DNA of 64,000 nucleotides from a virus. Positions within the stretch are counted from its first letter, which is position 1, and every line of letters begins with the position of its first letter. Of this stretch, positions 24,107 to 45,546 are shown piece after piece. A program made the translations under genes and the position numbers. The notes beneath the pieces were generated by a model. The model did no database searches. It was not told the DNA's origin and saw nothing but the letters and a program-made list of their open reading frames with translations. The stretch is from positions 1 to 64,000 of the IMG/VR virus record IMGVR_UViG_3300012922_000007, one strand, 5' to 3'.

Positions 24107-24373
24107 ATGAAAAAGCTAGTACAAGTCACCGAGGTAGAAGGCGAAGGACTTATGGCTCTTATGGGCCAGAAAGTGCTTCTTCTGTGTGCAAACTACTTTT
24201 ACACTGGAAAATTGATCGGGGTTAACGACACTTTTGTTCAACTTGAAGACCCGGCAGTAGTATACGAGACTGGTTCGTGGTCGGATAGTAAATTTAAAGA
24301 TGAACAGAAACTTCATACCAAAACATTCTATATTTCGACCTCTGCTATTGAATCGTTTGGAGTTTCAAAATGA
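24107..24373 (+). CDS. Conserved small beta-barrel-like protein
   Basis: 88 residues, MKKLVQVTEVEGEGLMALMG, then KVLLLCANYFYTGKLIGVND and a strand-rich remainder. The pattern (G.L.GV...V.LEDP..VYETG) resembles SH3- or Sm-like small barrels, and I have seen close relatives as hypothetical proteins in other genomes. The start follows GAGGAGAAAAT. It overlaps the repeat gene by 4 bp. Confidence 0.72.
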   Translation: MKKLVQVTEVEGEGLMALMGQKVLLLCANYFYTGKLIGVNDTFVQLEDPAVVYETGSWSDSKFKDEQKLHTKTFYISTSAIESFGVSK

Positions 24374-24639
24374 AGGATTTACGAAATAAGTGTAAGAAGT
24401 TATACAGGTCCTGGTCCTGGTCCTGGTCCGGGTCCTGGTCCTGGTCCAGGTCCGGGTCCTGGTCCAGGTCCGGGTCCAGGTCCGGGTCCGGGTCCAGGTC
24501 CTGGTCCGGGTCCTGGTCCGGGTCCAGGTCCGGGTCCGGGTCCTGGTCCGGGTCCGGGTCCAGGTCCTGGTCCGGGTCCTGGTCCGGGTCCAGGTCCGGG
24601 TCCTGGTCCGGGTCCGGGTCCGGGTCCGGGTCCTATTAA
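24370..24639 (+). CDS. Ser/Trp/Gly repeat protein
   Basis: 89 residues: a short basic start (MKDLRNKCKKLYR) followed by about 37 dipeptides of Ser with Trp, Gly or Arg. The ATG overlaps the preceding stop (ATGA), which supports expression on this strand. The other strand would read Gly-Pro repeats. Such proteins are likely disordered. Confidence 0.5.
   Translation: MKDLRNKCKKLYRSWSWSWSGSWSWSRSGSWSRSGSRSGSGSRSWSGSWSGSRSGSGSWSGSGSRSWSGSWSGSRSGSWSGSGSGSGSY
24407..24634. repeat. Hexanucleotide repeat GGTCCN, about 38 units
   Basis: Tandem GGTCCN where N is T, G or A and never C. The order of N changes along the array, so it is not a simple recent slippage product. On the minus strand N falls at the third base of Pro codons. 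Confidence 0.9.
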
Positions 24640-26425: not shown

Positions 26426-28081
26426 ATGCCAGCAAATAGGGCTAACTGCGGTTGTGCTTTGACCTCGGGTAACCCAGCTTGTACTGCTTGTATGCGATGT
26501 CCCGCGTGCTGCCGCAGCTATGGAGAGTGTCTTACATGCACTGGTCCATCCTGCGTAGATTCGAGACCAAGGCTTACGTATCGCCGAAGTCCGGATGTAT
26601 CAGCAGAATTTAGAGCTTGTCAATCTTGTGGATTTTGTTCTGCGTGTTGTTCTCAGAGGAATAGGTGCCACCGGTGCACAGGGTGTCACAGTAACTACGA
26701 AAGAACTCGTATTTGCGCAAATTGTAATATGTGTACAAATGGTTGTTGTCAATGTTGGAGTTGCGCGGGATGTCAGGTGAGGAGACCCCGAGGCAATCGC
26801 CAATGTCGTCAATGCGCTACTTGTATGCAGTGCTGTCAGTGTAGAACTTGTGAAAGATGCGAGGATCAGCGACGAGTCATTTGGTGTCCAGATTGCGAAT
26901 ATTGTTCTGGACATTGCAATGATCCGGAAAATCATACTGAAAGCTTTGTTGATCTAAGGCCGGAGCATCTTCGACCTAGATCGGCAATTATTGCTTTCCA
27001 AAAACGTGCGTTAAAGTTCTGGAACTCTGAACCTACGCAGTTCAAGAGAAATCCACTTAAACGCCACATTAGTGTTGAAATCGAGTGCGACAAGGTTAAT
27101 ACGTCCGGAAACGGAAAGAAATTGGCCTCGGTTCTCAAGAAATGGTCAGACTCTGTAGTGACAGACGGAAGTCTTTCCGGGGACTATGCACACGAGATCA
27201 ATACCTCACCCTCGAATGGTGATCTATTCGTTAACCATATCGAACAGATTACTGAAGCCTATAAAGACATAGATGGCAAGTGCTCAGTGAAGTGCGGCCT
27301 CCACGTCCATGTAAATTGCCAAGATTTGAAGTTCTATGATCTTCGCAAGGTCATTTTGCTGTATGCTAGGATTGAACGAGCGTTGTTCGAACTATGCAGG
27401 CCAGACCGGGTTAATGCCCAGTATAGCCGTCTGTGTGGCAAGAACTATGCCAACATGTCTCCAAATCCGGAAGAATTTCGCAGACAGCTGTTCGGGAAGT
27501 TCTACTGTGATTCGGAGAAACTTGCAGTTGCTAGACCAGATAAGAACGTTGGCCTCGCGATTAAGAAGAAGAAAGAGGGCAAATATGCTGGTGTTAGGTA
27601 TCGTGCTCTCAATCTTCACAGTTACTTTCTAAGGAAGACTGTGGAATTTCGGCATCATGAAGGGAGTGTTGACCCGGAAGTAATCATTAACTGGGCCGAG
27701 GTTTGTGCTTACATAATCGAAGCCGCGAATAAGCTATCCGAGGCGCAAATTCGAGCTTTACCAGATACCTCTCGCCAAGCTTTGTCCACAATTCTACCAG
27801 AGAATCTGAGAGAATGGTGTGACAAGATTTGGGAGAAATCTGTTGTAAAATGGGAGGAAGTGGAAATCAGCAACAATAGACCAGATCTTCCCCTCGTTCC
27901 AAAGGAGGAAAAACAGTTGGATAGACGAGCACTTCGCAAGAAACACAAGGCCGAAAGGAGAGCCAAGGCTAAAATTAATGAGTATAGGCTGATAGCTTTG
28001 CGAGCCATTATTTCAGGTCAGAGGTTGACTCCGCAACCGGTTGCTGCACAGTCCGGAACTGGACAATCAACTCCATTTTGA
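26426..28081 (+). CDS. Amidoligase with cysteine-rich zinc-finger N terminus
   Basis: 551 residues. The first 170 hold about 38 Cys in C-x2-C and CC units (MRCPACC, CGFCSACC, CATCMQCCQC), probably several zinc fingers. From about 215 an amidoligase-type glutamine-synthetase fold follows: KRHISVEIECDKV, then VVTDGSLSGDYAHEINTSPS, then CGLHVHVNCQDL, and EFRHHEGSVDPEVI. These match the Glu, Glu-x-N and His-x-His metal/ATP positions of the amidoligase_2 family, which joins carboxyl and amino groups. The class II amidotransferase and ATP-grasp genes downstream support a peptide-bond-forming pathway. The start follows AAGGAGGAAAT. Confidence 0.85.
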   Translation: MPANRANCGCALTSGNPACTACMRCPACCRSYGECLTCTGPSCVDSRPRLTYRRSPDVSAEFRACQSCGFCSACCSQRNRCHRCTGCHSNYERTRICANCNMCTNGCCQCWSCAGCQVRRPRGNRQCRQCATCMQCCQCRTCERCEDQRRVIWCPDCEYCSGHCNDPENHTESFVDLRPEHLRPRSAIIAFQKRALKFWNSEPTQFKRNPLKRHISVEIECDKVNTSGNGKKLASVLKKWSDSVVTDGSLSGDYAHEINTSPSNGDLFVNHIEQITEAYKDIDGKCSVKCGLHVHVNCQDLKFYDLRKVILLYARIERALFELCRPDRVNAQYSRLCGKNYANMSPNPEEFRRQLFGKFYCDSEKLAVARPDKNVGLAIKKKKEGKYAGVRYRALNLHSYFLRKTVEFRHHEGSVDPEVIINWAEVCAYIIEAANKLSEAQIRALPDTSRQALSTILPENLREWCDKIWEKSVVKWEEVEISNNRPDLPLVPKEEKQLDRRALRKKHKAERRAKAKINEYRLIALRAIISGQRLTPQPVAAQSGTGQSTPF

Positions 28082-28147
28082 CCTCGTATTTAACTTCAAG
28101 CCCGGACTTCCCGAAAGCGAGGTCCGGAGCGTGCGGTTAGGAGGAAT

Positions 28148-28681
28148 ATGAAAGAAATAGAGTTAACCCAGGGCTACAAAGCTTTGGTGGACGACGAAGA
28201 CGAAGCCAAGGTAAATCAGTTTACTTGGTGTGCTATGGTTAGAAATAATAAAGACGGCTCGTTTCGTACAGTCTACGCACAAACATCTCTTGGAGTGGAC
28301 GAAAAAGGAAAAAGTGTTAGGATATATTTACATCGGTTTATACTCGGTATAGTTGATCCTAAAGTTTTAGTGGATCACAAAGACTATAACGGATTAAATT
28401 GCCAAAAAGAGAACCTCCGAATTGCAGCTGATGGCCAAAATCCATGGAATGCTCGGATTTCAAAAAGCCATAAGACAGAATCTAAATACAAAGGCGTAAC
28501 GTTGTATAAAAGCCACGGCAGAGTCATAGGATACAAGTATAATATATGCAAGAAAGGTGAAAAGTTTTCGGAACGGGGATTTGAAACCGAGGATGAGGCT
28601 GGTCGAGCTTACGATAAAAAAGCCAAGGAGCTTTTTGGAGAGTACGCTTATCTAAACTTTCCGGATGAACAGGAATCTTAA
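28148..28681 (+). CDS. HNH homing endonuclease with AP2 domain
   Basis: 177 residues: MKEIELTQGYKALVDDED, then LHRFILGI and VDHKDYNGLNCQKENLR (HNH), then an AP2-type domain (YKGVTLYKSHGRVIGYKYN, EDEAGRAYDKKAKELFG). Related to the protein at 16632. It separates the amidoligase and amidotransferase genes, so it has probably invaded that operon. The start follows AGGAGGAAT. Confidence 0.87.
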   Translation: MKEIELTQGYKALVDDEDEAKVNQFTWCAMVRNNKDGSFRTVYAQTSLGVDEKGKSVRIYLHRFILGIVDPKVLVDHKDYNGLNCQKENLRIAADGQNPWNARISKSHKTESKYKGVTLYKSHGRVIGYKYNICKKGEKFSERGFETEDEAGRAYDKKAKELFGEYAYLNFPDEQES

Positions 28682-28703
28682 ATTAAACTAACGGAGGATG
28701 TAT

Positions 28704-30068
28704 ATGTGCGGTATTTTTTGTGTTGCAAATAAAGAGGGTTACGAGCCAAAATTGGATATAGCCATTCCAATTATGGCATTGATAATGGAAGAGAGGGGTA
28801 GACACAGTTTTGGCCTCTCTGATGGTGTGGAAATTATCAAAGACACGGGGCCAATTTCTTCTGGATTGACTGTAAACATGTTTACGGGAAAGAAGGAGCT
28901 AATAGCCCACACTAGACACGCCACTCACGGTTCTCAAACTAAACAAAACGCGCATCCTTTTGAATTCGGAGAAGGAGAAAATAAAATTATTGGTTTGCAC
29001 AATGGAGTATTAGTTAATCACGATAAGATGAACGAAGAACACAACAGAAAATTCGAGGTTGATTCTTGTCACATATTTCAGCATATTCTTGAAAACAAAC
29101 CACTTAAGGACATCCAGGGCTACGGTGCGGTAGCTTTCTTCCAGCGTGGTAAAATGTATCTTGGTAGATTTAATGGAGGCCAGCTGGCTATTGCAAGAAC
29201 AAAATTTGGAATAGTTGCGGCTTCGACTCAAGAAGCTGTTTACAAAGCTTTAAAAATATCCGGCTTGGAATTGGAATGTTTTTATGAGGTTCTGGATGAA
29301 AAACTTTATATGGTAGAAGAAGGTCTTTTATTTAACACTGACAGAGATTTCCGCTTCGGCTCTCGCTACCAGCCCATAACCAACAACTATCACGGACATT
29401 ACGAACCCCATGATTGGAGGCAAGGTTCGAATTACTATGAAGGAGCACGAGGCCGATGGATCAACAATCACTGGGAAGAGGGTAAATGGATCAACAAAGA
29501 TACATTTGTCCCAGGAGAATGGAAAACTGGTAAATTCACTCCGAATGACGAGGGCAAGGCTCAATTATTTCTCCTCGGAGATGGTAAATCTAAGAAGGGA
29601 AAGCAGAAGACCAAGAGGGCTGTCGCTGACTCAGATGCAGATAACTGCTGTCTATGTCAGTGTTTGTTCTCAGTCGAGGAAGAAACTTGGGACAGTCCCT
29701 TCGGTGAGTTATGCGATAGCTGCATGATGACTTGTTTTCGGGCTCAAATGGAAGAGGAGACCGAGGTCATTGAACTTGAAGCAACTATCGAGAACTCAGT
29801 AGGCGAGGGTATCCATAAACTGGACGATCCGTTTATTTCTACAACAGTCCGAGACTTTCTAAAGGAGCTAACAGATAAAGAAGCAGCAAGCAATAGATGC
29901 AATAAAGAGACAATGCAAGGATCGTGTGACGAATGTGCAGTTACAGTTAGCAACGATGATAAGATATTTGTTGATAAAGCCGACGGCCACATAGTAAAAT
30001 GGATTTTGTGTGTTGGATGTCATCATCAACTAACAACTCCATATAACACAGAATTTCCAATCTGTTAA
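28704..30068 (+). CDS. Class II glutamine amidotransferase-like protein
   Basis: 454 residues. It starts MCGIFCVANKEGYEP; removal of Met would expose Cys2, the nucleophile of Ntn-type glutaminases. Further family motifs are HTRHATHGSQTKQNAHPF, GLHNGVLVNHDKM and GYGAVAFF. The C-terminal 200 residues are Trp/Gly-rich repeats (GRWINNHWEEGKWINK), then two Cys clusters (CCLCQC, CDSC, CDEC, CVGCHH). The enzyme would free ammonia from glutamine or hydrolyse a gamma-glutamyl amide for the neighbouring ligases. I chose the second ATG because GGAGG is 6 bases away and Cys must be residue 2. Confidence 0.85.
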   Translation: MCGIFCVANKEGYEPKLDIAIPIMALIMEERGRHSFGLSDGVEIIKDTGPISSGLTVNMFTGKKELIAHTRHATHGSQTKQNAHPFEFGEGENKIIGLHNGVLVNHDKMNEEHNRKFEVDSCHIFQHILENKPLKDIQGYGAVAFFQRGKMYLGRFNGGQLAIARTKFGIVAASTQEAVYKALKISGLELECFYEVLDEKLYMVEEGLLFNTDRDFRFGSRYQPITNNYHGHYEPHDWRQGSNYYEGARGRWINNHWEEGKWINKDTFVPGEWKTGKFTPNDEGKAQLFLLGDGKSKKGKQKTKRAVADSDADNCCLCQCLFSVEEETWDSPFGELCDSCMMTCFRAQMEEETEVIELEATIENSVGEGIHKLDDPFISTTVRDFLKELTDKEAASNRCNKETMQGSCDECAVTVSNDDKIFVDKADGHIVKWILCVGCHHQLTTPYNTEFPIC

Positions 30069-30120
30069 GTCTTGAATCTGGATATCGAGGTCAAACTCCG
30101 TGTCCAGAATTGAGGATTTT

Positions 30121-30408
30121 ATGGATAAACCTATTGGATTAATGATATACTCCAAAAACGAGGGAAACAAATATTATGTGTTTTGTAGTGTTTGTTCCAA
30201 AAATAATAAGATGTACTGGAGTAGCTTAGAACCCTTAAAAGGAAGATCGTGGCCAATTTACAGAGAGAATATCGGAGTTTTTGGCCAGAAATGCCATTGG
30301 AACGGATGTAGAAATTTTTTAGTAGAAGGTCATCTTGATTTATTTCCTAATCCGAATGACGAGCACCTCAGTCTAAACTCTCCCTCGGAGATACTAAATG
30401 GCGGATAA
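30121..30408 (+). CDS. WPIY zinc-ribbon family member 1
   Basis: 95 residues, MDKPIGLMIYSKNEG, FCSVC, then SWPIYRENIGVFGQKC and a second Cys. Ends SPSEILNGG. First of six copies before the ATP-grasp gene. The start is set by agreement with its paralogues and GAGG upstream. Function unknown. Two Cys pairs probably hold one zinc. Confidence 0.78.
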   Translation: MDKPIGLMIYSKNEGNKYYVFCSVCSKNNKMYWSSLEPLKGRSWPIYRENIGVFGQKCHWNGCRNFLVEGHLDLFPNPNDEHLSLNSPSEILNGG

Positions 30409-30679
30409 ACCAATCGGCTACCTCGGATTTAATCGAAGAAATTGCGATCATCTGTGCTATTGGTGTATAAGATGTTACGAGCATTATAGTATAGCGAGGC
30501 GGAGTTATTGGAGTAACAACACGTGGCCGATATTCGAGGATCATCTCCAGAAGTTTAGACTTAAATGTCGTCAAGGATGTGGGAATATCCATAATCCGGA
30601 CGAGCCAGAAGAATTTTTAAATAGTGAACTTGTTGAAACTCTTGTCCCCGAATTATTCGACGAACCGGAGGAAGACTAA
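30398..30679 (+). CDS. WPIY zinc-ribbon family member 2
   Basis: 93 residues, MADKPIGYLGFNRRN, CIRC, TWPIFEDHLQKFRLKC, C. Overlaps member 1 by 11 bp and touches member 3. The acidic C terminus (ELFDEPEED) differs from the others. Confidence 0.78.
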   Translation: MADKPIGYLGFNRRNCDHLCYWCIRCYEHYSIARRSYWSNNTWPIFEDHLQKFRLKCRQGCGNIHNPDEPEEFLNSELVETLVPELFDEPEED

Positions 30680-31068
30680 TGCCTTACGTTCCAGCGGGTA
30701 ATGCAACAAATAGACAGGCGACCTCGTATGTCCCTCTAGCACCTAGAGAATGGATTGATGATCCCGAGGGCATTGGATTTATATTGTATTATGCACCGTA
30801 TAGGAGGTATCACTGGTTTTGTAAGAAATGTTATTTAACTGATGAAAAATCATGGGATGCGTATAAAAGCGTGGATAGTGACGAGGGAAACGGTTTATTT
30901 TGGTCGTATAAGGACCAATTCAAAAATATGAGGCAAATTTGTGGTGTGGGGTCATGTACGTTTATTTTGGAAGGGATGGGTTTAAATACGTTTCCCAGTG
31001 ATACTGGAGCTTTACCCTCGCCTACCGAAATTTTAGCTCAAATTACGGGGAGAAACAATGTCAGGTAG
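30679..31068 (+). CDS. WPIY zinc-ribbon family member 3
   Basis: 129 residues. An extra 25-residue N terminus precedes GIGFILYY, then FCKKC, FWSYKDQFKNMRQIC, C, and ALPSPTEI. The WP motif is reduced to W. Confidence 0.75.
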   Translation: MPYVPAGNATNRQATSYVPLAPREWIDDPEGIGFILYYAPYRRYHWFCKKCYLTDEKSWDAYKSVDSDEGNGLFWSYKDQFKNMRQICGVGSCTFILEGMGLNTFPSDTGALPSPTEILAQITGRNNVR

Positions 31069-31543
31069 ATCAGTAGTAGATGTTTGGTACCACGGTTGCC
31101 GCTACGAGGTTCTACGAGGTCAAGCACCTGGATGGGGACTAAGAATCTTCTTTAACGTAGAAGATGATGAGGATCTGTGGGTTCTCGACTCCAGTTCATC
31201 TGTAAAAACTAAGATTGATCCGATGGGAACATACTATGTCTCGCATTATGAGAGATTTTACTCTATCTCTAAGAAAGTAATAGGTTTCCGCAAGGAAGGT
31301 CCGAGGGTAACGCATATCAAGAGCGGGGATAAATTCGATAAATACGTAGACCGTCCGACGAAATGGACTCCGAATAACCGAGCAATCCTGAAGGATTTGG
31401 ATAGATATCGAATCTGGTTGACCTCGCAACCTGAATTGGTCGAGGCGGCTCGTAAAGAGTTGAAAAACAAGGTGTTAGGTTGCTGGCATAGTCCGAAGGC
31501 CGGATTTGCAGATATTTTGCTGAAAGTGGCTAACGAGGAATAA
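31058..31543 (+). CDS. Hypothetical protein between family members
   Basis: 161 residues, alpha/beta, with VDVWYHGCRYEVLRGQAPGW at the start and a helical basic end. It overlaps the preceding gene by 11 bp. No family is recognised. Its place in the cluster suggests a shared role. Confidence 0.68.
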   Translation: MSGRSVVDVWYHGCRYEVLRGQAPGWGLRIFFNVEDDEDLWVLDSSSSVKTKIDPMGTYYVSHYERFYSISKKVIGFRKEGPRVTHIKSGDKFDKYVDRPTKWTPNNRAILKDLDRYRIWLTSQPELVEAARKELKNKVLGCWHSPKAGFADILLKVANEE

Positions 31544-31544
31544 C

Positions 31545-31709
31545 ATGAAAAAGCCAAAGTTTCGTTCTGATCCGTTGACTAAAATTAGAGAACTTCTGGA
31601 TGAAAATAACCGCCAAAAGGAAGAAATATCAAGGCTCGAAAACAGAATATTAACCTTGGAAGCTAGAGTTCATATTTCTAATCTTCGAAACGAAATTGAC
31701 GATATTTAA
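31545..31709 (+). CDS. 54-residue coiled-coil protein
   Basis: MKKPKFRSDPLTKIRELLDE, then a leucine-zipper-like helix (EEISRLENRILTLEARVHIS). Starts after CGAGGAAT and lies 10 bp before the next gene. Confidence 0.68.
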   Translation: MKKPKFRSDPLTKIRELLDENNRQKEEISRLENRILTLEARVHISNLRNEIDDI

Positions 31710-31718
31710 AGGAATAAT

Positions 31719-31982
31719 ATGCCAGATACTCCTGTAGGATATCTACTGTGGTGGCCGAGGACAAAGAAATATTACCTGTATTGTACTATATGTGCAAGTG
31801 GGCCTCGAAGAGAACGTTGGACTACTGCACGAGGACCAAGTTGGCCAATCTATAAAGAACTAGTTGGAAATTATTCACAAAGATGCCACGATTGTGGAAG
31901 AATAACTTTTATGGGCGAAGATTTTCTGTTTCCGGACGAATTTTTGATAGGTTTACCCGGACCTGAGGCCATAAATGCCTGA
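31719..31982 (+). CDS. WPIY zinc-ribbon family member 4
   Basis: 87 residues, MPDTPVGYLLWWPRTKKYYL, CTIC, SWPIYKELVGNYSQRC, DCG, LPGPEAINA. One of the two most typical members. Overlaps member 5 by 8 bp. Confidence 0.8.
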   Translation: MPDTPVGYLLWWPRTKKYYLYCTICASGPRRERWTTARGPSWPIYKELVGNYSQRCHDCGRITFMGEDFLFPDEFLIGLPGPEAINA

Positions 31983-32250
31983 AGAACCAATAGGATATCT
32001 GCTCTGGTGGAATCCGCAAAACCGATGGTTTTATTATTGCCCAGAATGTTCAAAAGTAAATATAAACCATTGGAGACAGCAGGAAGCCAAGTTTTGGCCA
32101 GTATACATTGAACATATAGGGAAATATTCTCAAAAATGTGGGAATTTTCACGAAAATGGTCGTTATAGTTTGTGCGGAGAAGTCTCTACTGTACTATTTG
32201 ACCAAGAATCACTTTTTACTTTGCCTAGACCCGAGGATATTCATGCGTAA
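31975..32250 (+). CDS. WPIY zinc-ribbon family member 5
   Basis: 91 residues, MPEEPIGYLLWWNPQNRWFY, CPEC, FWPVYIEHIGKYSQKC, a longer gap to the last Cys, LPRPEDIHA. Clearly a tandem duplicate of member 4. Confidence 0.8.
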   Translation: MPEEPIGYLLWWNPQNRWFYYCPECSKVNINHWRQQEAKFWPVYIEHIGKYSQKCGNFHENGRYSLCGEVSTVLFDQESLFTLPRPEDIHA

Positions 32251-32473
32251 AGACGCTCTTTTTCCTACTAAAACTAGCCTCGTGTTTAATTTCCGAGGTC
32301 TGCCCTCCTACACAGGAGGACATCGTTTTATTTGTGGCCATATTCAAATATGCGGGGATCATGTCCAACGAATCAAAGAACCCGACGTTTGCTGGGATTG
32401 TTTCAAGGCTATCCGTATTCTGGAAAGTTCTAAGAGTCATAGGGTAATTCAGAAAAGAACGAGGTCAAAATGA
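32243..32473 (+). CDS. Cys/His zinc protein in the cluster
   Basis: 76 residues, MRKDALFPTKTSLVFNFRG, then FICGHIQICGDHVQ and CWDCF. It does not share the WPIY motif. It overlaps members 5 and 6, so it is co-translated with them. Confidence 0.68.
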   Translation: MRKDALFPTKTSLVFNFRGLPSYTGGHRFICGHIQICGDHVQRIKEPDVCWDCFKAIRILESSKSHRVIQKRTRSK

Positions 32474-32895
32474 GCGAGCCTGTTGCGTATTTGTTTTGGT
32501 ATACTTATGGGCCTAGGTGGTATATATTTTGTCCTAGATGTTATAGGGACAGCTGGACCCAAGAATCAAATAAGAAGTACATCTATCCGGTATTCGAGGA
32601 GTATGTTCAGAAATTCCATCTAATATGTCATTCTGGTTGTATTATATCAGGTAAAGAGGAAGATCCTATTTTTGTAAACGCAGATACTACCTCTTTGCCG
32701 TCTCCAAATGAAATTCGAGATGAAATTCGAGGAGAAAATCAGGCAGGCAGTAGTCCGAGTTTCAGAGTTCTGGAACCAATGATATTTAACATACCTGCCG
32801 AGCAGCCATCTCGGAATTATCGAAATTACTTTTCTTATTCTACTAGCACTGATATCTCCAATATCAGGATTGTTCCTAATACAGAGGAAATATGA
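32470..32895 (+). CDS. WPIY zinc-ribbon family member 6
   Basis: 141 residues, MSEPVAYLFWYTYGPRWYIF, CPRC, IYPVFEEYVQKFHLIC, C, SLPSPNEIRDEI, then about 50 extra residues rich in Asn, Ser and Tyr. The start follows CGAGGTCAAA. Confidence 0.78.
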   Translation: MSEPVAYLFWYTYGPRWYIFCPRCYRDSWTQESNKKYIYPVFEEYVQKFHLICHSGCIISGKEEDPIFVNADTTSLPSPNEIRDEIRGENQAGSSPSFRVLEPMIFNIPAEQPSRNYRNYFSYSTSTDISNIRIVPNTEEI

Positions 32896-33035
32896 ACCTC
32901 GGAGACATTGGAGCTTGGGCAGGCGCTATTTTATCTTTAGTCTCGGCTATAGGCTACGCCTTCGCCGGGGATTATCGAAGGGCCTTGTACTTTGGATTCG
33001 CATTTGCTTTGACGTTAACGATTATCTGGAAATAA
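32892..33035 (+). CDS. 47-residue two-span membrane protein
   Basis: MNLGDIGAWAGAILSLVSAI, a short charged loop (GDYRRA), then a second hydrophobic segment. The ATG overlaps the previous stop. Position directly before the ATP-grasp gene. Confidence 0.68.
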   Translation: MNLGDIGAWAGAILSLVSAIGYAFAGDYRRALYFGFAFALTLTIIWK

Positions 33036-33048
33036 CGAGGTCAAAAAC

Positions 33049-33861
33049 TTGAAATACATTCTTAGACGCCGAGGTATGGGCCGAGACTCGTGCCGACTGA
33101 TTGCACAACACAGCACCACGGGTCTCAAAGTTATTCGTAATGACAAATATCAACCCGAGGCCAATTTCCTATTCCGGTGGGGAACTCTCTCAAATGTCCG
33201 GAATCCGGAAAGAGAGATTAACTCTTCCGAGGCTATTCACCTAGCTGCGAATAAGGCAGAGTTTAGGAAGGTATTGCAAGAGGAAAATTTGGCCCCGAAG
33301 ACGTGGTACAATGGATTTGTGTCTTATCCTTGCATAGTCCGACCTTTGCAACATAGCGGAGGACAGAATTTATATGTTTGTAAGGACAGCCTCGATCTAC
33401 AAGCTGCAATTCGAGCGTGTAACGGACAATTTTACGCCTCGGAATTAATAAACAAGAAAGCCGAGTTTAGAGTATATACAGTATCTGGACGAGCCATAGG
33501 TGTGTCCCAGAAATTCCCTCGGGATGCTAATTCGGTTGCTTGGAACGCTAGATGCGGCGGTACGGTGCAGACTGTTAGCTGGGATAACTGGCCTCTACGT
33601 GTACTTAAGTCGGCTATTCGGGCTGATGAACTCTCTGGTTTAGATTTTGCTGCCCTCGATTTGATTGTGGATAACGAGGACAAAGTCTATGTCCTTGAAT
33701 CTAACAGTGCTCCGTCGGTGTCAGATTATCGTGCTAAGTGTTTTGCGAGAGCTTTCGATTATATTATTGCTAACGGAAAAACTCGAATTCCTCTTGTGGG
33801 GCGTCTTGGAGGATGGAGAAAATTTCTCCACCCGTCCTTGTCCTCGGAGGTTTGGCTATGA
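33049..33861 (+). CDS. ATP-grasp ligase (RimK-like)
   Basis: 270 residues from a TTG after CGAGGTCAAAAAC. It shows an N-terminal small domain, a central ATP-binding segment (YPCIVRPLQHSGGQNLYVC), FYASELINKKAEFRVYTV, and the metal-binding C-terminal motif GLDFAALDLIV with VLESNSAPSVS. ATP-grasp ligases activate a carboxylate as acyl phosphate and join it to an amine. With the amidoligase and the Ntn amidotransferase this makes three enzymes of amide chemistry within 7.4 kb. The substrate is unknown. Confidence 0.85.
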   Translation: MKYILRRRGMGRDSCRLIAQHSTTGLKVIRNDKYQPEANFLFRWGTLSNVRNPEREINSSEAIHLAANKAEFRKVLQEENLAPKTWYNGFVSYPCIVRPLQHSGGQNLYVCKDSLDLQAAIRACNGQFYASELINKKAEFRVYTVSGRAIGVSQKFPRDANSVAWNARCGGTVQTVSWDNWPLRVLKSAIRADELSGLDFAALDLIVDNEDKVYVLESNSAPSVSDYRAKCFARAFDYIIANGKTRIPLVGRLGGWRKFLHPSLSSEVWL

Positions 33862-34121
33862 ACGATCGAGTAGGGATATTACTGAAGGATACGCAGAAAC
33901 TATACTTCTTTTGTGCTTTCTGCGCCACTGGCTACGAAAACCTGAAAAGAAGGTATGGGTCGAACTGGGATATTTGGGATGTCTTCGAGGATCAAATCCC
34001 GGAGAACTGGGGCCAACCTTGTCAATCTGGAGGATGTACTAGAACACTAAGGGAAGGAATTCCTTTATTTGCCTCGGAGCTACAGATACAAGAGTTCTAT
34101 GAAATGGTGCAACTCGTATAA
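33858..34121 (+). CDS. WPIY zinc-ribbon family member 7
   Basis: 87 residues, MNDRVGILLKDTQKLYFFC, FC, IWDVFEDQIPENWGQPC, C. The ATG overlaps the ATP-grasp stop (ATGA), after GGAGG, so the two are translated together. Confidence 0.78.
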   Translation: MNDRVGILLKDTQKLYFFCAFCATGYENLKRRYGSNWDIWDVFEDQIPENWGQPCQSGGCTRTLREGIPLFASELQIQEFYEMVQLV

Positions 34122-34371
34122 TTTGTACTTCTTCTGTAACTTCTGTAACGATAGATATGATTTTGCAGGAGATAGAAACGAACGTTGGAAAATTTGGCCT
34201 GTATATTTAGAGCAAATACCAGAGCTATTTGGACAAAAATGTCATCAAGATGATTGTCTTCAGATACTAAAACCAGGTCCGTCGTTATACGAAACGATCT
34301 CGGATATGAGAAAAGATTATAGCATGGTGTCTTTGTATAGGAGGAATAGTGCATCCTCTGGACAGGTTTGA
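34099..34371 (+). CDS. WPIY zinc-ribbon family member 8
   Basis: 90 residues, MKWCNSYNLYFFCNFCNDRY, IWPVYLEQIPELFGQKC, C. The first 10 residues usual in the family are missing. Most similar to member 7. Overlaps it by 23 bp. Confidence 0.72.
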   Translation: MKWCNSYNLYFFCNFCNDRYDFAGDRNERWKIWPVYLEQIPELFGQKCHQDDCLQILKPGPSLYETISDMRKDYSMVSLYRRNSASSGQV

Positions 34372-39787: not shown

Positions 39788-40330
39788 ATGCCTTCAAAAG
39801 AAGAATACGCGAACATGACCGAGGAACAAAAAAATATCATATTAGAAAGAAATAACAAGTGGAGAGAAAACAATAAAGAGGCTTATGCGATTTCACAAAG
39901 AAATTATAGAAAAAGAAACAAAGAGAAGATAGCTTCGTTGAAAAAGACGCAATATGAGGAAAATAAACATGTTGTTTTATTAGCAGCTAAAATAATTTAT
40001 TATTTACGCAAAGCTCTTATGCCGAATACTTTAGCAGAATCAGGGTCTAGGCAGCAGAGGAAGACTCTTTATAAAATGACTCCAGAACAGCTAGATCAGA
40101 TGTGGAGCGAGCAAGGCGGTGTTTGCAAAATGTGCTCTCTTCCTACTAACAAATTATGCGTAGATCACGATCATAATTGTTGCCCCGGAAAAGCTTCGTG
40201 CGGTAAATGCATCCGTGGCATTTTATGCCATACGTGTAATATTGCTCTGGGGGTATACGAAAAACACAAATCAAATTGCGAAGATTATTTAATAAACTTC
40301 CTAAGAAAACGCGATACGAGGTCAATCTAA
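39788..40330 (+). CDS. Endonuclease VII-type HNH homing nuclease
   Basis: 180 residues: a Lys/Arg/Asn-rich helical N terminus, then CKMCSLP, CVDHDHNCCPGKASCGKC and ILCHTCNIAL. The same signature as the nuclease at 6572 next to terminase. It starts one base after the polymerase stop and its TAA overlaps the next ATG. Confidence 0.88.
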   Translation: MPSKEEYANMTEEQKNIILERNNKWRENNKEAYAISQRNYRKRNKEKIASLKKTQYEENKHVVLLAAKIIYYLRKALMPNTLAESGSRQQRKTLYKMTPEQLDQMWSEQGGVCKMCSLPTNKLCVDHDHNCCPGKASCGKCIRGILCHTCNIALGVYEKHKSNCEDYLINFLRKRDTRSI

Positions 40331-40692
40331 TGCCTTCACCCAAGAAGATCGGCATCCTGATATTTCACGAGGAATACCGTCATTATTTAACACTTTGTAC
40401 GGAGTGTTTCGAGGGGCATAATTGGTTAACCGAAAACAGAAATTGGCCGATTTACGAGGGGGATTTCGGAATGTTTCGTCAACCATGTGACTATTGCCAC
40501 GAAGAAATGAATCCCGAGGCCAGTCCTACAATGTCTGAACTATTTACCATCAGAAAACTTACAATTACGAGGTATGATAGTTACACGAGAACTACGAGGC
40601 CAAAACTTCCTGCCCCTCGAACTATTGAAAGGATGGTGAAAAATGAAACTATTGGCGACCTTAATATTCCTGTTGTTCCTAGCACCCAATGA
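40330..40692 (+). CDS. WPIY zinc-ribbon family member 9
   Basis: 120 residues, MPSPKKIGILIFHEEYRHYL, CTEC, NWPIYEGDFGMFRQPC, C, then an extra basic tail of about 45 residues. It is separated from the main cluster by 6 kb. The start follows CGAGGTCAATCT. Confidence 0.75.
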   Translation: MPSPKKIGILIFHEEYRHYLTLCTECFEGHNWLTENRNWPIYEGDFGMFRQPCDYCHEEMNPEASPTMSELFTIRKLTITRYDSYTRTTRPKLPAPRTIERMVKNETIGDLNIPVVPSTQ

Positions 40693-41588: not shown

Positions 41589-41774
41589 ATGAATCACAAA
41601 TGTGGTGCTGTAGACGACGAATCGTGTTTGTTTGGCTCCGTACACCGCTGCAAGTTTTGGTGTCCTGAAGATAATACTATATGCGGCGGACCTCACACGT
41701 GTCTATGCGGATCAAAGTGGCAATATTATGAACCTAGTGGTCTTTATCAAAGTTCAGACGATTCGAGACCGTAA
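41589..41774 (+). CDS. Cysteine-rich small protein
   Basis: 61 residues with nine Cys (CGAV, SCLFG, RCKFWC, CGGPHTCLCG). Start after GGAGGTTAAAG. Its TAA overlaps the integrase ATG, so it is co-translated with it. Confidence 0.66.
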   Translation: MNHKCGAVDDESCLFGSVHRCKFWCPEDNTICGGPHTCLCGSKWQYYEPSGLYQSSDDSRP

Positions 41775-42619
41775 TGACATTCGAAACCTATGTAAATTAC
41801 TTCAACGAAAGTATTTTGGCCTTGGGTAAGACTTCGTCCATAAAAAGTTCGAGGTCAAGGCTAAAGAAATGCGTAGAAGTCTTTGGTAAAGAAGAACTTC
41901 CCCTAGATCCTAGGCGCGTTCAGAAGTTCATTACTCAGCTTAGTCAGAAATATCCTAGCCAAACAGTGGCTAATGTCTGGGGAGCGTTTAGAGCTGTACT
42001 TATGCGGGCAAAATCTGAGGGATTAATCTCCTCCGTCCCCTCTCCTCTATTACCAAAGATAGAACGATCAGAACAGCCTTGGTTTACAGTCGAGCAGATG
42101 CGAATTCTTTCGAGGTACGAACCAATCTACGCATTCGCTTCTGAGACTGGCGCGAGGATAGGCGAGATCTTAGCGATCCAGATTCCGGATATTGACTTCG
42201 AGAACAAGACGATCCATATAAGACGCAACGTGTATGACGGGGTTATTTCAAGTCCTAAAACGAGGGCGGGGACAAGGTTAATTTCAGCCTCGACTTGGCT
42301 CTGTGATATTCTAAAGAAAGAATGCGAGGGCCGCGAGGATGGTTTTATATTCCAATCGCTTGGAGGAGGGCCTCGTAATCCAGATTCTGAGACTAGAAAA
42401 TTGCAACATGCGTGTACAGTGTTTGATATTCCGTATGCAGGGTGGCATGGATTTAGGCGTGGAAATTGCACGCTTATGGCGATGACTTTAGGAATAGCGG
42501 AGAGCCTAATAGAGTACAGAGTTGGACACTCTGTTAGAGGCGTTTTGAGCCGGTACATACATTTTTTCCCTGGCGAAGACCGGGAAATTTCCGAAAGGAT
42601 ATCAGAGGTATTACGATGA
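41774..42619 (+). CDS. Tyrosine recombinase (integrase)
   Basis: 281 residues. The N-terminal SAM-like DNA-binding part (30-100) is followed by the catalytic domain: Arg in SETGARIGEI, His and Arg in WHGFRRGN, His in VGHSVRG, and Tyr in SRYIHFFPG. All family residues except the lysine are easy to see. It implies integration or resolution of the phage genome. No attachment-site repeats can be identified in the window. Confidence 0.88.
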   Translation: MTFETYVNYFNESILALGKTSSIKSSRSRLKKCVEVFGKEELPLDPRRVQKFITQLSQKYPSQTVANVWGAFRAVLMRAKSEGLISSVPSPLLPKIERSEQPWFTVEQMRILSRYEPIYAFASETGARIGEILAIQIPDIDFENKTIHIRRNVYDGVISSPKTRAGTRLISASTWLCDILKKECEGREDGFIFQSLGGGPRNPDSETRKLQHACTVFDIPYAGWHGFRRGNCTLMAMTLGIAESLIEYRVGHSVRGVLSRYIHFFPGEDREISERISEVLR

Positions 42620-44478: not shown

Positions 44479-45546
44479 ATGAAGTCAATTACGAAGTTGC
44501 TCGGCACGACCGGACTAGCCTTTTTCTTGTCCCTTTCCCTCGGATGTTACGGGGTTAAGAAAGTAGTAATTTCACCCCCACCGGGACTAACCGAAGCACC
44601 TTCCGGATTTGATAATGAAACTAATGGTTTTGTAGATCAGGCGAGGCACGATGCAGATCGAGATCAATTCGAGGAAGACGCGGGAGATGAAATTGGCCCT
44701 GTGTTTAATCATAGGTCTTGCCTCGATTGTCATTCTAGTCCAGTAACCGGAGGCTATTCTCAAGTATTTGAACACAGAATTGCAGCCGGTGCGAGGTTAA
44801 TTCACGATCAAGTTGTCCCTGGAACTGCACAGGAAGTATCTCCCGCAGGTGCACACAATGCTCTACGAGCCTCGATTTCTCTTATGGGTGATGGGTTTGT
44901 AGAACAGGTTCCGGATAGTTTGTTGAAGTATATCGCATCGGTTAACGGCGGGGTTTTTGTCCTCGTAGATAACGGACGGGTAGGCCGGTTTGGTCACAAG
45001 GACCAGCACGCCGGTCTATTTGAATTCGCAGGCGATGCAGACTTCAACGAGAAGGGAGTAGGCAACAGAGTTAATCCAGATCCGGACAATGGTATCGAGG
45101 ACCTGGAACCAACTTGTCTTGGTGGTGGAGAGGATATTGACTGCTATACGAGGTTTATGCAGGCTCTTAAGGCTCCACCTCGTGGTAAGATCACTGATCA
45201 AGTAAACCAGGGCGAGGAAGTATTCTATAAAATTGGTTGCGCATTTTGCCATACACCAACCTTGTATACTAGCAAGAACGTGTTCCATCCTTATGGGGAC
45301 TATTTGCTTCATAACATTGGGACAGGGGATGGTGTTGCACAAGGCGCGGCTCCTGCTAATGTTGTTCGTACCGCGCCTTTGTGGGGACTTAGAACCAAGT
45401 CTCGCATGTTGCACGATGGTCGTGTGTTCGATGTCCTTGCAGCTATTAAAGCGCATGAGAAAGAGGCTGATAGGTCCGAGGACAAGTTCGAGAGGTTGAG
45501 TAAGAAAGACAAAGAAAATTTGCTTGTGTTTTTGAATTCACTTTAA
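44479..45546 (+). CDS. Di-haem c-type lipoprotein, DUF1111-like
   Basis: 355 residues. A lipoprotein signal (LSLSLGC, Cys23) precedes two haem motifs, C81LDCH85 and C254AFCH258. Between them is VGRFGHKDQHAGLFEFAGDA, and after the second LWGLRTKSRMLHDGR, both typical of the DUF1111 / di-haem oxidoreductase family related to MauG. It would sit in the periplasm or outer membrane and act in electron transfer or peroxide chemistry. Such genes are very unusual in phages. It contains the CGAGG word at normal phage density, so it is not an obvious very recent arrival. Length is shorter than the 400-500 usual for the family. Confidence 0.85.
   Translation: MKSITKLLGTTGLAFFLSLSLGCYGVKKVVISPPPGLTEAPSGFDNETNGFVDQARHDADRDQFEEDAGDEIGPVFNHRSCLDCHSSPVTGGYSQVFEHRIAAGARLIHDQVVPGTAQEVSPAGAHNALRASISLMGDGFVEQVPDSLLKYIASVNGGVFVLVDNGRVGRFGHKDQHAGLFEFAGDADFNEKGVGNRVNPDPDNGIEDLEPTCLGGGEDIDCYTRFMQALKAPPRGKITDQVNQGEEVFYKIGCAFCHTPTLYTSKNVFHPYGDYLLHNIGTGDGVAQGAAPANVVRTAPLWGLRTKSRMLHDGRVFDVLAAIKAHEKEADRSEDKFERLSKKDKENLLVFLNSL

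What the first reader, a model, noticed from the sequence alone, without database searches (positions are those of the whole stretch)
26426..33861. Amidoligase, Ntn amidotransferase and ATP-grasp ligase in one phage cluster
Three different enzymes of amide chemistry lie within 7.4 kb on one strand. Amidoligase / class II amidotransferase / ATP-grasp neighbourhoods have been predicted by comparative genomics to build peptide tags or modify proteins, but are little studied. Here both the amidoligase and the amidotransferase carry extra cysteine-rich zinc modules, and the cluster is interleaved with eight copies of a zinc-ribbon family, which could be the carriers or substrates.
Basis: partly seen in the sequence, partly recalled or inferred. 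Interest (0 to 1): 0.86.

Follow-up and report, generated by a model that had tools for sequence, protein, structure and literature searches.

The report
Zinc-module variant of phage amidoligase cassette
This virus of bacteria carries three linked enzymes that make amide bonds, a gene set already known from other phages and suspected of altering the host cell surface, here in a less familiar form whose enzymes carry cysteine-rich, probably zinc-binding, add-ons, with a family of small orphan proteins around them.

Summary
26426-28081 is an Amidoligase_2 enzyme (glutamine-synthetase/YbdK-like fold), 28704-30068 a class II glutamine amidotransferase (GATase), 33049-33861 a RimK-like ATP-grasp ligase; all pass curated Pfam cut-offs. 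The Cys-rich extensions are real. The small zinc-ribbon-like family has nine copies, not eight. The trio is not new: LUZ24-like phages carry amidoligase, HNH, GATase and ATP-grasp in this order, and print calls such sets a 'peptidoglycan modification cassette'. New here: phage amidoligases split into a short type and a type with long Cys-rich N-termini, which includes the window. In an amidoligase-seeded scan, 21 of 24 Cys-rich amidoligases but 18 of 52 others lie within 5 kb of a class II GATase, and amidoligase and GATase trees broadly agree. So the core is probably a two-protein glutamine-dependent amidating enzyme, with ATP-grasp as an add-on of separate history. The small-protein family was found nowhere else, so its role as carrier or substrate is unsupported. 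New variant of a known kind; target unknown, cell envelope favoured.

The parts
26426..28081 (+). Amidoligase_2 (GS/YbdK-like carboxylate-amine ligase), 551 aa: Cys-rich N-terminus (about residues 1-185), catalytic domain about 195-470, helical tail
   Evidence: Pfam PF12224 8e-17; AF2 pLDDT mostly above 85 over 191-350 and 391-470; Foldseek YbdK 1r8g E 1.1e-4 and glutamine synthetases
26426..26985 (+). Cys-rich repeat region of the amidoligase; three units matching CxxCxxCx(1-4)Cx(0-6)CxxCxxC
   Evidence: 39 Cys upstream of E-x-E; repeats counted; no Pfam hit, only a chance-level PDB hit at E 0.97; AF2 pLDDT about 30-45, fold unresolved
28148..28681 (+). HNH/AP2-type (homing) endonuclease gene between amidoligase and GATase
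   Evidence: phrog_99 HNH endonuclease 2e-24; an HNH gene sits at the same position in phage UFV-P2
28704..30068 (+). Class II (Ntn) glutamine amidotransferase with C-terminal Cys-rich ribbons
   Evidence: PF13230/PF13522 over cut-off; C2, R71, N100, G101, D120 invariant in 7 aligned sequences; four CxxC in the tail
30121..30408 (+). zinc-ribbon-like paralogue 1 (likely start 30121; ORF from GTG 30100)
   Evidence: start inferred from the aligned MDKPIG
30398..30679 (+). zinc-ribbon-like paralogue 2
30679..31068 (+). zinc-ribbon-like paralogue 3
31058..31543 (+). DUF4326 protein
   Evidence: PF14216 1e-5, 26.5 bits against cut-off 25; phrog_464 3e-9
31719..31982 (+). zinc-ribbon-like paralogue 4 (modelled by AF2, mean pLDDT 82.9)
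31975..32250 (+). zinc-ribbon-like paralogue 5
32470..32895 (+). zinc-ribbon-like paralogue 6
33049..33861 (+). RimK-like ATP-grasp ligase, 270 aa
   Evidence: PF08443 5e-8; R98, E139, R141, K155, D204, E217, N219 invariant in 10 aligned sequences
33858..34121 (+). zinc-ribbon-like paralogue 7 (start inferred at ATG 33858 after GGAGG)
34099..34371 (+). zinc-ribbon-like paralogue 8
40330..40692 (+). zinc-ribbon-like paralogue 9, outside the cluster
   Evidence: found by the eight-copy model at 1e-10; leave-one-out 1e-11; nine in the 78.5-kb record

Best explanation
A variant of the known phage amidoligase cassette. Its core is two proteins: the class II GATase hydrolyses glutamine and passes ammonia to the amidoligase, which activates a carboxylate with ATP (glutamine synthetase/YbdK chemistry) and turns it into a carboxamide, so the pair works like other two-part glutamine-dependent amidating enzymes such as MurT/GatD. 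The Cys-rich modules dock the two enzymes to each other or to their target. The RimK-like ATP-grasp enzyme is a separately acquired add-on that ligates an amino acid to the same target. The most likely target is a cell-envelope precursor, changed early in infection. Shown: families, fold of the amidoligase domain, conserved residues, linkage, tree pattern. Inferred: ammonia transfer, docking role, target, timing.
For: Families and conserved residues. Fold: top Foldseek matches are YbdK and glutamine synthetases. Amidoligase-seeded linkage: 21 of 24 distinct Cys-rich amidoligase ORFs have a class II GATase within 5 kb against 18 of 52 others (Fisher p 2e-5, not corrected for relatedness); 2 of the 3 Cys-rich misses (L254, L277) lie at contig ends. 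In 44 loci from bacterial genomes the only strongly Cys-rich amidoligase (L062) is also the only one with a GATase. Amidoligase and GATase trees both put the Cys-rich group largely together (2 label changes each; shuffled means 19.4 and 13.3), with the window inside it. ATP-grasp: profile matches in 3 of 16 whole Cys-rich records besides the window, and the window's copy is sister (100/99) to that of a short-type cassette, L004. Print proposes cell-wall modification for such cassettes.
Against: No substrate, product or complex was tested. The window's record lacks the COOH-NH2 ligase and gamma-glutamylcyclotransferase that accompany the cassette elsewhere, so the published wall pathway may not apply here. 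The host is unknown. Three Cys-rich amidoligases had no GATase nearby, one of them (L247) with ample flanks. GATase tails of L002, L008, L030, L032, L045 and L047 have no CxxC, so zinc modules on both partners are not universal. The GATase could serve another acceptor, and 34 of 52 other amidoligases have none nearby.
Confidence: 0.5

Rival explanations
1. Protein modification: the enzymes amidate or add amino acids to host proteins (ribosome, RNA polymerase), and the Cys-rich modules are adaptors that pick the protein target.
For: ATP-grasp is closest to RimK, a protein glutamyl ligase. Phage R2K ATP-grasp enzymes are predicted protein modifiers in print (passages). Large Cys-rich modules suit protein-protein contacts (inference).
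Against: ATP-grasp is absent from most Cys-rich cassettes (found in 4 of the 24 contigs of the list). The window protein scores below cut-off for R2K models. No protein target is encoded with the pair across relatives.
Confidence: 0.25
2. The nine small zinc-ribbon-like proteins are carriers or substrates of the ligases.
For: Six of nine copies lie between GATase and ATP-grasp genes and two at the end of the ATP-grasp gene, mostly with overlapping or abutting ends.
Against: The family is an orphan: no convincing relative, although the enzymes are widespread. One copy lies 6 kb away. Only C, C, W, C are invariant, so no conserved attachment residue stands out.
Confidence: 0.07
3. The cassette makes a small molecule or hypermodified nucleotide for the phage rather than modifying wall or protein.
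For: Class II GATases and ligases occur in nucleotide and metabolite pathways (established knowledge).
Against: No DNA-modification enzyme turned up among the proteins scanned (not every ORF of the window was scanned). The core recurs in contigs whose other genes differ.
Confidence: 0.1
4. Chance neighbours: the three genes are unrelated in function.
For: ATP-grasp has a different history from the pair.
Against: GATase within 5 kb of 21 of 24 Cys-rich amidoligases in an amidoligase-seeded scan; the same enzyme families together in other phages.
Confidence: 0.04

Closest known systems
Amidoligase / HNH / GATase / ATP-grasp block of LUZ24-like phages (UFV-P2 ORFs 23, 24, 25, 28)
   Same: Same enzyme families in the same order, even an HNH gene between amidoligase and GATase (table passage)
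   Different: UFV-P2 also lists a COOH-NH2 ligase motif (ORF21) and a GGCT-like protein (ORF29), both not found in the window's record; its amidoligase is 385 aa; no Cys-rich modules or repeated small zinc proteins are mentioned in the passages read
'Peptidoglycan modification cassette' of RIO1-like podoviruses (PSA-HP1 ORFs 40-47; conserved in phiEco32, LUZ24, PA11, CW02 and others per the paper)
   Same: Amidoligase, ATP-grasp and glutamine amidotransferase among transcription and replication genes (section read)
   Different: Window lacks gamma-glutamyl amidoligase (COOH-NH2 ligase) and gamma-glutamylcyclotransferase
Cys-rich amidoligase-GATase pairs in IMG/VR contigs L006, L030, L043-L047, phage record MW202637 and Elusimicrobia MAG contig L062
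   Same: Cys-rich N-terminus, amidoligase 26-39% identical to the window's (whole protein or domain), GATase gene nearby
   Different: Of the first set only L043, L044 and L046 also have an ATP-grasp; the last scan adds L231/L232 and L235 (L237 is the same contig as L046); none has the small orphan family
YbdK and glutamine synthetase fold enzymes
   Same: Fold of the catalytic domain
   Different: Distant: 9-14% identity and TM 0.41 by YbdK length; the Cys-rich region was not modelled well enough to compare
MurT/GatD peptidoglycan amidation pair (PMC3267633, seen in a search listing with the start of its abstract)
   Same: Works-like analogy: two-protein, glutamine-dependent amidation of a carboxylate
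   Different: Different folds (Mur-ligase-like plus GatD, partly recalled); no membership claimed

Membership tests
Phage amidoligase cassette ('peptidoglycan modification cassette') | Amidoligase_2 enzyme | tested here: met
   Pfam over cut-off, GS/YbdK-like fold
Phage amidoligase cassette ('peptidoglycan modification cassette') | Glutamine amidotransferase gene nearby | tested here: met
   622 bases downstream, with the HNH gene between
Phage amidoligase cassette ('peptidoglycan modification cassette') | RimK-like ATP-grasp gene | tested here: met
Phage amidoligase cassette ('peptidoglycan modification cassette') | Gamma-glutamyl amidoligase (COOH-NH2 ligase) | tested here: not met
   No match in the 78.5-kb record with PF14395 or own profile A9. 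PF14395 rings in 3 of 17 other records but misses L044, where my own profile sees it. The record may be incomplete
Phage amidoligase cassette ('peptidoglycan modification cassette') | Gamma-glutamylcyclotransferase | tested here: not met
   PF06094 no match; control rang in 9 of 14 genomes
Phage amidoligase cassette ('peptidoglycan modification cassette') | Modifies peptidoglycan | not testable with these tools
   Only proposed in the papers read
Cys-rich amidoligase group (named here) | At least 7 Cys with CxxC pairs before the catalytic E-x-E | tested here: met
   39 Cys, 27 CxxC-like
Cys-rich amidoligase group (named here) | Falls with the other Cys-rich amidoligases in a tree | tested here: met
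   On the 39-row side, support 96/86, which holds 36 of 36 Cys-rich rows (plus L032, just under the cut-off there, and L021 and L023, which lack the module); sister to L006 at 96/79, not starred
Class II glutamine amidotransferase | N-terminal Cys and Ntn glutaminase residues | tested here: met
   MCGIF start; C2, R71, N100, G101, D120 invariant; residue roles recalled from GlmS
R2K clade of ATP-grasp | Score over R2K Pfam cut-offs | tested here: not met
   R2K_2 22.6 bits against 26.2; R2K_3 21.5 against 26.3

The most novel reading that the evidence does not exclude
The Cys-rich amidoligase plus GATase is a separate two-part phage modification system in which zinc modules select the target, and in this phage the nine diverged small zinc-ribbon-like proteins serve as interchangeable adaptors that direct the amidating enzyme to different host targets.
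Probability: 0.08. Interest if true: 0.85.

Novelty: new variant of a known kind. Interest (0 to 1): 0.5.

Why it matters
Amidoligase cassettes recur in many phages, yet I saw no tested function for any of them. Separating a Cys-rich amidoligase-GATase pair from the larger cassette gives a minimal two-gene unit whose chemistry can be assayed directly, and suggests that ATP-grasp and COOH-NH2 ligase are optional. If the pair amidates an envelope precursor or a host protein it would define a phage takeover or superinfection mechanism that is now only a prediction.

Tried and rejected
Zinc-ribbon proteins as conserved partners: rejected after searches found none elsewhere. Their AF2 model (mean pLDDT 82.9) has no PDB match better than E 2.1, so even 'zinc ribbon' rests on the cysteine pattern.

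Fold of the Cys-rich N-terminus: AF2 pLDDT about 30-45, no Pfam hit, PDB best E 0.97. Unresolved.

None of the 80 had the pattern inside an amidoligase; many matches were out of frame or low-complexity. The scan says nothing about specificity.

PF08443 on whole records missed L004 and L044, which my own profile finds; I used the profile.

Tunturiibacter phage Tunturi_3, the best terminase match among listed phages, lacks the cassette (one amidoligase-like match at 7e-4 only).

A single-protein scan with the whole amidoligase found no viral contig; alignments were needed.

Rows dropped: one search left out loci of repeated contigs (L007, L031, L041, L042, L050, L060), three short amidoligase hits (first copy of L017, L019, second copy of L033) and five identical rows. 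One search also left out L029, L038, L056, L058, and the GATase tree lost rows not matching my MCG[ILVM] start filter (L003, L024, L025, L039 and L043 are missing), rows under 130 aa and identical rows. One search counts distinct ORFs only, and the tool kept the best 80 of 110 confirmed matches. In one search I compared 18 chosen loci.
Full report
What is there. On the + strand between 26.4 and 34.4 kb lie an amidoligase (26426-28081), an HNH/AP2 endonuclease (28148-28681), a class II glutamine amidotransferase (28704-30068), three small zinc-ribbon-like genes, a DUF4326 gene, a short ORF, three more small genes, a RimK-like ATP-grasp gene (33049-33861) and two further small genes. The window is part of a 78,530-base IMG/VR virus record. 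Around it are a terminase and portal on the - strand and a replication module with DNA polymerase A, primase-helicase, RecT and RecA on the + strand.

Families. Pfam puts all three enzymes over curated cut-offs and PHROGs agrees. The amidoligase catalytic domain is predicted well (pLDDT mostly above 85 over residues 191-350 and 391-470), and its best structural matches are YbdK (E 1.1e-4) and glutamine synthetases. Residues invariant in relatives include E218, E220, H293, H295, N396, E407, R409 in the amidoligase (18 sequences), C2, R71, N100, G101, D120 in the GATase (7 sequences) and R98, E139, K155, D204, E217, N219 in the ATP-grasp (10 sequences). Catalytic roles for these are recalled from the families.

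Already known. The paper on phage UFV-P2 lists amidoligase, HNH endonuclease, glutamine amidotransferase and ATP-grasp in this order (PMC3890496, two passages). A section of PMC5498523 (read in full) names a 'peptidoglycan modification cassette' in RIO1-like podoviruses and says it is conserved in phiEco32, LUZ24 and others. PMC10580990 and PMC11318856 (passages) repeat the idea that such enzymes alter the cell wall against superinfection, citing Iyer et al. 2009, which the library does not hold. My searches listed no paper whose title or shown abstract start describes a tested enzyme activity for such a cassette or Cys-rich modules on phage amidoligases. Most listed papers were not read, so this is no proof of absence. 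One paper (PMC10945688, passages) reports growth effects of a phage that carries such genes and attributes them to these genes only by inference.

Two kinds of phage amidoligase. I collected loci by amidoligase and GATase searches and scored cassette genes with my own profiles. Amidoligases split into a short type, with 0-3 Cys in up to 80 residues before the E-x-E motif, and a Cys-rich type, with 111-463 residues and 11-39 Cys before it. L032, with 135 residues and 7 Cys, is borderline, and four proteins (L034, L035, L037, L038) had no recognised motif. In a 61-row tree the label needs 2 changes against a shuffled mean of 19.4; a branch at 99/96 separates 19 short rows from 42 rows that hold all 36 Cys-rich ones. 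The window lies among the Cys-rich group, beside L006 (96/79).

Pairing with the GATase. In the first collection all 24 contigs in my Cys-rich list have a class II GATase in the fetched stretch, but 18 of them were fetched through the GATase. The fairer test is the last scan, seeded only with amidoligase: 21 of 24 distinct Cys-rich ORFs have a GATase within 5 kb, against 18 of 52 others (Fisher p 1.7e-5; relatedness not corrected, and the seed came from the Cys-rich group). Two of the three misses sit at contig ends; L247 does not. Of 44 bacterial-genome loci only L062, an Elusimicrobia MAG contig with a strongly Cys-rich amidoligase, has a GATase; 16 of the 44 have a cyclotransferase-like neighbour instead. 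GATase and amidoligase trees agree in broad outline. A marine group (L009, L010, L048, L049, L051-L059, L061) has amidoligase-GATase-amidoligase triples.

ATP-grasp is an add-on. With a profile over whole records it is found in 3 of 16 Cys-rich records other than the window (L043, L044, L046) and in the control L004; the last scan adds L231/L232 and L235, while L237 repeats the contig of L046. The window's copy is sister to the one in L004, a short-type cassette (100/99; 42% identity), so its history differs from that of the pair; the tool warned that long branches meet in this part of the tree. The window's record has no detected COOH-NH2 ligase and no GGCT.

Cys-rich modules. The window, L006, L030, L045 and L062 share an 8-Cys repeat of the form CxxCxxCx(2-4)CCxCxxCxxC. 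It has no Pfam hit and no solved relative, and AF2 did not fold it. GATase tails with two or more CxxC pairs occur beside both amidoligase types and are not universal.

The small family. Nine copies, confirmed by leave-one-out models and by a search of the whole record. Only two cysteines of a CxxC pair, a Trp and a third Cys are invariant. No convincing relative was found elsewhere, and the predicted structure matches nothing solved. It looks like a lineage-specific expansion of unknown role.

Reading. The simplest account is a two-protein glutamine-dependent amidating enzyme with an extra ATP-grasp ligase. Chemistry follows from the families; the target is not shown. I favour a cell-envelope precursor because that is the standing proposal for such cassettes, and rank protein modification second because the ATP-grasp is RimK-like and the Cys-rich modules look like docking parts.

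Noticed in passing
44479-45543 (+): Phage-borne di-haem oxidoreductase (DHOR, PF06537 3e-18) with two CxxCH haem motifs and a hydrophobic, possibly lipoprotein-type N-terminus; only 1 of 50,697 phage records has a tblastn match.
   Followed up: partly
24370-24639 (+): Low-complexity ORF of Trp-Ser/Gly-Ser repeats; the opposite strand reads as Gly-Pro repeats.
   Followed up: no
31058-31543 (+): DUF4326 protein inside the cluster; print proposes this rhodanese-phosphatase-like domain acts on ADP-ribose products (PMC9503650, passages).
   Followed up: partly
about 32251-32473 (+): A further small ORF with CxxC-type cysteines ends just inside small paralogue 6 and may be another short gene.
   Followed up: no
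L009, L010, L048, L049, L051-L059, L061: Viral contigs with amidoligase-GATase-amidoligase triples, both amidoligases Cys-rich.
   Followed up: partly
L062 7473-9822: Elusimicrobia MAG contig encodes the closest amidoligase found (39% identity) with the same 8-Cys repeats and an adjacent GATase, plus a second shorter amidoligase upstream; perhaps a provirus.
   Followed up: partly
L063-L105 (bacterial genome loci): Amidoligases without Cys-rich module; 16 of the 44 genome loci have a gamma-glutamylcyclotransferase-like neighbour, suggesting gamma-glutamyl amine chemistry.
   Followed up: no
41774-42619 (+): Tyrosine recombinase (PF00589), so the phage may be temperate.
   Followed up: no
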